This document shows, piece by piece, positions 29,936 to 31,129 of a DNA stretch of 64,000 nucleotides. Both the position numbers and the translations under genes were made by a program. Each line of letters opens with the position of its first letter. Positions within the stretch are counted from its first letter, which is position 1. This DNA is from Leptolyngbya ohadii IS1. Its GTDB lineage: Bacteria > Cyanobacteriota > Cyanobacteriia > Elainellales > Elainellaceae. Location: assembly GCF_002215035.1 (NCBI RefSeq), contig NZ_NKFP01000006.1, positions 3,749,080-3,813,079 on the forward strand, in the 5' to 3' direction. The notes under the pieces are model-generated. The model was not told where the DNA came from. It did no database searches and was given only the letters and a program-made list of their open reading frames with translations.

Positions 29936-30610
29936 TCAGCCACGCTCCATTAATTCGATCGCTTCCCACTCTTTCTCTGTTAAAGGCTGAGGCACCAATT
30001 CAACCCCAAACGTTTCACAGGCAGCCATCGTTAGCGCCTCTATAACCTGCTGATACAAATCGGGTGCAGTCAGGTCGAAGGGCAGATCGAAGGGCAGATC
30101 AAAAGGCTGCATCGGTTCACCAAACACCTGCTCAAACAAAACCGGATCGGGCTGAAGTCGCATTGAGCCGTGCTGCAAAATCGTATTGCCGCGCCGCAGT
30201 TGGGCACTCCCAATCAGTTTGACACCGTTGGGCAAAACCAAATCCGCTGCCGTTGCCGTTCCAAAACAGTTGGGGTTATGGATATACCCTCGTCCTGCCG
30301 TGCCGTAGTGCAGTTCGACGCCGATCGATCGCCAGCCACGAATCAAAAACTCACAAATTTGCTGATATGCCGACCTGCGCGTTCCCGATAGCCCAGAAGT
30401 AATCACCGCATAGGTAAGCTCCCCCTGATGCAAAACCGCCCGCCCCCCACTCGGACGCCGCACCAGATCTAACGGACGATCGTTCCAGGTCAATTCGCAC
30501 CACTGTGGCGGAAACTGCCGCTGATGGTACCCCAGAGAAATTGCCGCCGGATGCCAGGTATAGAAGCGCAGCGTAGCAGGATGCCCGTGTTGATGATGCT
30601 GTTCGAGCAA
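29936..30610 (-). CDS. Lipoate-protein ligase A-like protein, 5' end disrupted by a palindrome
   Basis: About 224 residues from TTG at 30610: LLEQHHQHGHPATLRFYTW, PAAISLGYHQR, LVRRPSGGRAVLHQGELTYA and GSAQLRRGNTILQHGSMRL match the BPL/LplA/LipB fold, including the RRxxGG and lysine-site blocks. Upstream in the same frame the codons read IDRW, which continues the family N-terminus. That sequence then runs straight into the centre of a perfect inverted duplication, so the true start, promoter and first residues cannot be seen. The gene may ligate lipoate or octanoate to a carrier protein. Coding looks intact downstream of the palindrome. Confidence 0.8.
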   Translation of the reverse strand: MLEQHHQHGHPATLRFYTWHPAAISLGYHQRQFPPQWCELTWNDRPLDLVRRPSGGRAVLHQGELTYAVITSGLSGTRRSAYQQICEFLIRGWRSIGVELHYGTAGRGYIHNPNCFGTATAADLVLPNGVKLIGSAQLRRGNTILQHGSMRLQPDPVLFEQVFGEPMQPFDLPFDLPFDLTAPDLYQQVIEALTMAACETFGVELVPQPLTEKEWEAIELMERG

Positions 30611-30913
30611 CCATCGATCGATGGTTGCTCGAACAGCATCATCAACACGGGCATCCTGCTACGCTGCGCTTCTATACCTGGCATCCGGCGGCAATTTCTC
30701 TGGGGTACCATCAGCGGCAGTTTCCGCCACAGTGGTGCGAATTGACCTGGAACGATCGTCCGTTAGATCTGGTGCGGCGTCCGAGTGGGGGGCGGGCGGT
30801 TTTGCATCAGGGGGAGCTTACCTATGCGGTGATTACTTCTGGGCTATCGGGAACGCGCAGGTCGGCATATCAGCAAATTTGTGAGTTTTTGATTCGTGGC
30901 TGGCGATCGATCG
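30322..30913. repeat. 592-bp perfect inverted duplication with no spacer
   Basis: The arms 30322-30617 and 30618-30913 are exact reverse complements as far as I can compare, with the centre inside CCATCGATCGATGG. The left arm is the 5' half of the lipoate ligase-like gene; the right arm is its mirror copy. Beyond the arms the sequences are unrelated (GCGTCG on one side versus CCATTT on the other). Confidence 0.9.
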
Positions 30914-30921
30914 CCATTTGA
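30625..30921 (+). pseudogene. Mirror-image 5' fragment of the lipoate ligase-like gene
   Basis: This is the right palindrome arm read on the plus strand. Its 98 codons match the first 96 residues of the minus-strand gene exactly, then end two codons after the junction (GWRSIAI, stop). It lacks the lysine-binding half and cannot be a working ligase. If the palindrome is an artefact, this feature does not exist in the organism. Confidence 0.7.
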
Positions 30922-31129
30922 GTCTTGCCAGGGGCGGAGAGCAGGGGGGCAGAGGAGCAAGGGAATTTAATTGAATTTTTCTTGTGGGGTGGGCATCTTG
31001 CCCGCCATTCAGGATTTCTGCCAAGCCAGGAGCAGGGGAACGAAAGAAATTCCTTCGTTTGGGGGGAGTCGATCGCCTTAGGTTTAGGATATATCTTCGG
31101 ACTAAGTGTTTTTTTGATATCGCTGAATC

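What the first reader, a model, noticed from the sequence alone, without database searches (positions are those of the whole stretch)
30322..30913. A 592-bp perfect palindrome with no spacer splits the lipoate ligase-like gene
The 5' half of the gene is followed immediately by its own reverse complement, centred in CCATCGATCGATGG, with arms of 296 bases that I could not find to differ. Such long spacerless palindromes are normally destroyed by SbcCD or cannot be cloned. The right arm has no partner for the gene 3' half and ends abruptly in unrelated DNA. The best explanations are a foldback chimera (amplification or contig-end artefact) or a fresh inversion-duplication at a GATC-rich site. In either case the real N-terminus and promoter of this gene are missing from the sequence, and the real distance to the 31130 hydrolase is uncertain.
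Basis: partly seen in the sequence, partly recalled or inferred. Interest (0 to 1): 0.75.

Follow-up and report, generated by a model that had tools for sequence, protein, structure and literature searches.

The report
Assembly artefact: false palindrome in gene
The perfect 592-base mirror-image sequence is really in the deposited letters, but it is almost certainly a stitching error: a piece of the gene was pasted in backwards through two 10-base chance overlaps, as at about 20 other places in the 2.0 million bases examined of this draft cyanobacterial genome.

Summary
The gene is a single-copy lipoyl ligase A/B-type gene, found in all 40 relatives searched. Its upstream codons are not missing: just right of the palindrome the minus strand reads PLLSAPGKTQMAIDR, which joins in frame to WLLEQ at the centre, as in relatives. 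So the right arm is an inverted insert, and both its junctions are exactly 10-bp overlaps (ATCGATCGAT, CGATCGATCG). It is not unique. In 2.0 Mb of this genome I found ten spacerless long palindromes plus one with a 66-bp spacer, within about 20 clusters of scrambled local copies; 1.2 Mb of relatives gave none of the palindromes. Junction overlaps across the clusters peak sharply at 10 bp, which looks like a software minimum-overlap rule; a published gap closer uses that default (PMC3446322). The same scars cut the starts of the only purH and pdxJ copies, and the scaffolds hold N gaps. The centres are GATC-rich only because 54% of this genome's 10-bp palindromes are. Verdict: mis-filled assembly gap, not biology. 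Reads were not available, so this is inferred.

The parts
29936..30617 (-). Main part of a lipoyl ligase A/B-type gene; its first 296 bp in this copy (30322-30617) are the left arm of the palindrome
   Evidence: Pfam LplA-B_cat 3.1e-20 and BPL_LplA_LipB 4.1e-16; match in 40 of 40 relatives; only gene of its kind in the genome
30613..30622 (.). Junction 1 and palindrome centre: ATCGATCGAT, a 10-bp self-complementary overlap
   Evidence: Perfect palindrome centred at 30617/30618. Inferred native reading CAAATGGCGATCGATCGATGGTTG shares exactly 10 bp with its own reverse complement here
30618..30913 (+). Right arm: inverted copy of 30322-30617, pasted between two neighbouring parts of the gene; proposed false patch
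   Evidence: 100% identical reverse complement; interrupts PLLSAPGKTQMAIDR / WLLEQ, which are continuous in relatives
30904..30913 (.). Junction 2: CGATCGATCG, a 10-bp overlap where the inverted copy rejoins the gene's upstream part
   Evidence: Sequence; arm identity stops at 30913
30904..30947 (-). Upstream codons of the same gene, PLLSAPGKTQMAID(R), in place right of the palindrome
   Evidence: Translation; relatives read e.g. WRLIPPLLAPGSQQMAIDRWLLEQ and WRLIPLLEAPGKIQMALDRWLLRQ
30979..31010 (.). Dispersed short repeat (gtggggtgggcatcttgcccgcc) with about 40 or more partial copies in the genome; together with the G-rich tract 30931-30960 a plausible cause of an assembly gap
   Evidence: Own-genome DNA search listed 40 matches, most of them over bases 64-110 of the query 30914-31129

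Best explanation
An assembly artefact made while a gap or weakly covered stretch at the 5' end of this gene was being closed. A local piece of about 300 bp, read in reverse, was joined to the gene on one side because its last 10 bases (ATCGATCGAT) are their own reverse complement. On the other side it was joined through another 10-bp overlap (CGATCGATCG). The result is a false 592-bp palindrome; the true gene runs straight through. Shown: the exact anatomy, the uninterrupted gene in relatives, many sister scars in the same assembly, and the 10-bp overlap rule. Inferred: that software (or finishing by overlap) did it, and which step.
For: (1) Both junctions are 10-bp overlaps, and the gene parts on either side join in frame as in relatives. 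(2) Not unique: 2.0 Mb of this genome holds ten spacerless palindromes plus one with a 66-bp spacer, with perfect arms of 39 to 513 bp, in about 20 clusters that contain inverted copies. With one criterion (arms of at least 40 bp within 4 kb) there are 50 inverted events in 2.0 Mb here against 1 in 1.2 Mb of relatives. (3) Overlaps at junctions across clusters: 16 at exactly 10 bp, 7 at 11, 6 at 12, 3 at 13, few at 7-9; a minimum of 10 with chance extension predicts about 55, 28, 11 and 4%. (4) GapFiller closes gaps on an overlap of at least 10 nt by default (PMC3446322). (5) The only purH lacks its first 39 model positions, and the only pdxJ is cut at its start by another palindrome; a photoautotroph could hardly live with that. 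(6) Scaffolds contain N runs of 361 and 451 and scattered single Ns inside 16S rRNA. (7) One pasted arm ends in 96 bp with 27 substitutions and no indels, 13 of them to G, like a bad read tail. (8) The genome encodes SbcC and SbcD, which should act against a real 592-bp palindrome.
Against: GapFiller's published scheme extends both edges with 29-nt overlaps, so the inverted pieces need misplaced or wrongly oriented reads or another tool. A few junctions overlap by 7-9 bp. The closed-genome control was small (0.4 Mb); the rest of the control is short loci from draft genomes.
Confidence: 0.91

Rival explanations
1. In-vitro polymerase chimera: during whole-genome amplification or library making, the growing strand switched at a self-complementary 10-mer to the opposite strand, copied back 296 bases and switched again; the assembler took the chimera as consensus.
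For: Whole-genome amplification is known to give pervasive palindromic reads and inverted duplications in assemblies (PMC6218980); the anatomy fits a double template switch.
Against: Overlaps pile up at exactly 10 bp; as far as I know polymerase microhomologies spread widely below that. Many scars are direct copies and multi-piece patchworks. No sign that the DNA was amplified was available.
Confidence: 0.05
2. A real, recent inverted duplication in the chromosome, formed by a double template switch at GATC-repeat palindromes during replication (or a tandem inversion duplication that lost one copy), which inactivated the gene.
For: Self-complementary sites lie at both junctions; a three-copy inverted arrangement exists at another site (C6:3553097-3553962); cyanobacteria are often polyploid (general knowledge), so a broken copy might be tolerated.
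Against: It would need dozens of such events in one genome and none of the palindromes in relatives, each with a fixed 10-bp overlap, and the loss of ends of indispensable single-copy genes. SbcC and SbcD are present.
Confidence: 0.03
3. An invertible or regulatory palindrome with a function, such as a phase-variable switch or a long hairpin transcript from the gene.
For: None beyond the shape; the arms could fold as a very long hairpin.
Against: No relative carries it; no recombinase gene was seen among the ORFs listed beside it; the other palindromes share no sequence with it.
Confidence: 0.01

Closest known systems
Gap-closing misassembly (e.g. closure on a 10-nt minimum overlap, GapFiller default; PMC3446322)
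   Same: Pieces joined on overlaps with a sharp minimum of 10 bp; scars of about 0.1-2.5 kb; residual N runs elsewhere in the scaffolds
   Different: Not shown that this tool was used; inverted pieces are not expected from correctly oriented reads
Palindromic (inverted chimeric) sequences from whole-genome amplification (PMC6218980)
   Same: Perfect inverted duplications of local sequence
   Different: Fixed 10-bp overlap and mixed direct/inverted patchworks are not the reported hallmark; no amplification is known here
Tandem inversion duplication / fork template switching in living bacteria
   Same: Inverted copy bounded by short self-complementary sites; one sister site has three copies
   Different: Far too many, confined to this assembly, with a uniform 10-bp overlap and broken indispensable genes

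Membership tests
Assembly (gap-closing) artefact | Same kind of scar recurs across the assembly and is absent from relatives | tested here: met
   50 inverted events in 2.0 Mb against 1 in 1.2 Mb; palindromes 11 (one with a 66-bp spacer) against 0
Assembly (gap-closing) artefact | Joins share a fixed minimum overlap | tested here: met
   Sharp peak at 10 bp, tail as expected from chance extension
Assembly (gap-closing) artefact | Indispensable single-copy genes broken at the scars | tested here: met
   purH lacks its first 39 model positions; pdxJ cut at its start
Assembly (gap-closing) artefact | No read supports the joins | not testable with these tools
   No reads available
Tandem inversion duplication | Three copies: direct, inverted, direct | tested here: not met
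   Only two copies of the arm in the genome at this site; a sister site has three
Tandem inversion duplication | Junctions at pre-existing short palindromes preferred over background | tested here: inconclusive
   Both junctions are 10-bp palindromes, but the type of centre across sites is no more GATC-rich than the genome's 10-bp palindromes, 7 of 10 against 54%, p = 0.36
Whole-genome-amplification chimera | DNA was amplified before sequencing | not testable with these tools
   No sample record
Lipoyl ligase A/B-type protein (the host gene) | Catalytic domain of the family | tested here: met
   PF21948 3.1e-20 over its 27-bit cut-off, PF03099 4.1e-16; no NCBIfam equivalog reaches its cut-off

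The most novel reading that the evidence does not exclude
The palindromes are real: this lineage makes inverted and direct local duplications in bursts at sites with 10-bp matches, keeps them despite SbcCD, and tolerates broken copies in a polyploid cell.
Probability: 0.03. Interest if true: 0.75.

Novelty: not a real feature. Interest (0 to 1): 0.12.

Why it matters
As biology it most likely does not exist. It matters for data quality: this species' genome is listed as 100% complete and 0.58% contaminated, yet the 2.0 Mb examined carry about 20 scrambled patches, broken purH, pdxJ and lipoyl-ligase genes and false palindromes. Anyone mining it for palindromes, gene losses or rearrangements would be misled. 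A pile-up of junction overlaps at one fixed length is a simple test for such errors.

Tried and rejected
Fresh inversion-duplication at a GATC hotspot: rejected, since the centres match the background of 10-bp palindromes. Foldback read at a contig end: rejected in that simple form, since the sequence resumes exactly in the gene. 'No sequence relation to the right flank': rejected. Mobile element: the palindromes share no sequence with each other, and the arm occurs nowhere else. Naming the strain: the genome size (7.90 Mb) resembles Leptolyngbya sp. JSC-1 at 7.87 Mb (PMC9953108), but nothing tests this, so I do not claim it. The 0-4 bp and negative overlaps were not resolved one by one.

Full report
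The observation. The window holds a perfect, spacerless palindrome at 30322-30913, arms 296 bp, identity 100%, ending sharply at base 297 from the centre. The next longest perfect palindrome in the 64 kb has 8-bp arms. The arm occurs nowhere else in the 7.9-Mb genome.

The gene. The left arm and the DNA to its left code, on the minus strand, for a lipoyl ligase A/B-type protein (PF21948, PF03099). No NCBIfam equivalog reaches its cut-off. It is the only such gene in the genome and all 40 relatives searched have a match. In relatives the protein runs WRLIPPLLAPGSQQMAIDRWLLEQH (nearest relative, same genus) and similar.

What lies beyond the palindrome. In fact the minus strand reads PLLSAPGKTQMAIDR there, which is the stretch just before WLLEQ. 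The two parts join in frame if the right arm is left out. The right arm is therefore an inverted insert, and no base of the gene need be lost at this point. Further upstream the start codon and the WRLI residues cannot be found. A G-rich tract and a dispersed repeat with some 40 or more partial copies follow.

The junctions. The centre is ATCGATCGAT. The inferred uninterrupted sequence (CAAATGGCGATCGATCGATGGTTG) and its own reverse complement share exactly these 10 bases at the switch. The right end is CGATCGATCG, again exactly 10 bases shared by the inverted copy and the gene's upstream part. A fragment whose last ten bases are self-complementary overlaps its own reverse complement by ten bases. 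That alone explains why the palindrome has no spacer.

Sister scars. In 2.0 Mb of the same genome there are ten spacerless palindromes and one inverted pair with a 66-bp spacer. The perfect parts of the arms are 513, about 510, 501, 296, 176, 170, 169, 158, 77, 69 and 39 bp. They sit within about 20 clusters, most 0.1-2.5 kb long, of local copies in both orientations. The same test found 50 inverted events here, none in 0.4 Mb of two closed genomes of the same family, and one in 0.82 Mb of loci from other cyanobacteria.

The ten-base rule. Overlaps between neighbouring copied pieces inside the clusters number 16 at 10 bp, 7 at 11, 6 at 12, 3 at 13, with few at 7 to 9. Some of the 11s come from one short tandem repeat. 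A minimum overlap of 10 with chance matches beyond it predicts about 55, 28, 11 and 4%. Such a sharp lower limit is natural for software and unnatural for a polymerase; the second half of that sentence is general knowledge. GapFiller closes gaps when two extensions overlap by at least 10 nucleotides by default (PMC3446322). That this tool was used here is not shown.

Further signs. The only purH begins at model position 40, directly at a small palindrome. The only pdxJ is cut at its start by a 510-bp-armed palindrome. murF seems to have lost the residues before its conserved start at a 501-bp-armed palindrome (the loss is judged from general knowledge of MurF, since the family model begins after that point). 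The scaffolds contain N runs of 361 and 451 bases and scattered Ns within 16S rRNA genes; some N runs could also be masking by the data provider. Next to the pdxJ palindrome the pasted copy goes on for 96 bp with 27 substitutions and no indels, 13 of them to G, as a poor read tail might.

GATC and SbcCD. Seven of ten centres contain GATC, but so do 54% of all 10-bp palindromes in this genome (p = 0.36). HIP1-like repeats, known to be abundant in cyanobacteria (PMC4390886), give the look of a hotspot. SbcD and SbcC are both encoded.

Conclusion. The palindrome is most likely a false patch put in during assembly (0.91). Amplification chimera (0.05) and real inverted duplication (0.03) are left as rivals. 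The decisive test is read mapping, which I could not run.

Noticed in passing
Own genome C6:3880672-3881697, C6:3720867-3721868, C6:3553138-3553503, C6:3937206-3937343, C4:209410-209749, C6:309642-310733, C6:463021-463376, C6:605460-605613, C6:304893-304998: Further long spacerless palindromes of the same kind, several at the starts of conserved genes (murF, pdxJ, purH).
   Followed up: yes
Own genome C6:3479073-3480744, C6:4009428-4012047, C4:183765-185829, C4:306646-308600, C6:753259-755503: Patchworks of several direct and inverted local copies within 2-3 kb, joined at overlaps of about 10 bp.
   Followed up: partly
Own genome C6:304939-306390: The only purH copy lacks its first 39 model positions; upstream, a 218-bp piece of the neighbouring gene is repeated directly.
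   Followed up: partly
Own genome C6:309582-309677: A 96-bp stretch 72% identical to the 3' part of pdxJ, substitutions only, rich in changes to G.
   Followed up: partly
Own genome C4:618-1096 and C6:551021-551366: Scattered single Ns inside 16S rRNA genes, as if conflicting reads were merged.
   Followed up: no
window 30979-31010: Dispersed short repeat gtggggtgggcatcttgcccgcc with about 40 or more partial copies in the genome.
   Followed up: no
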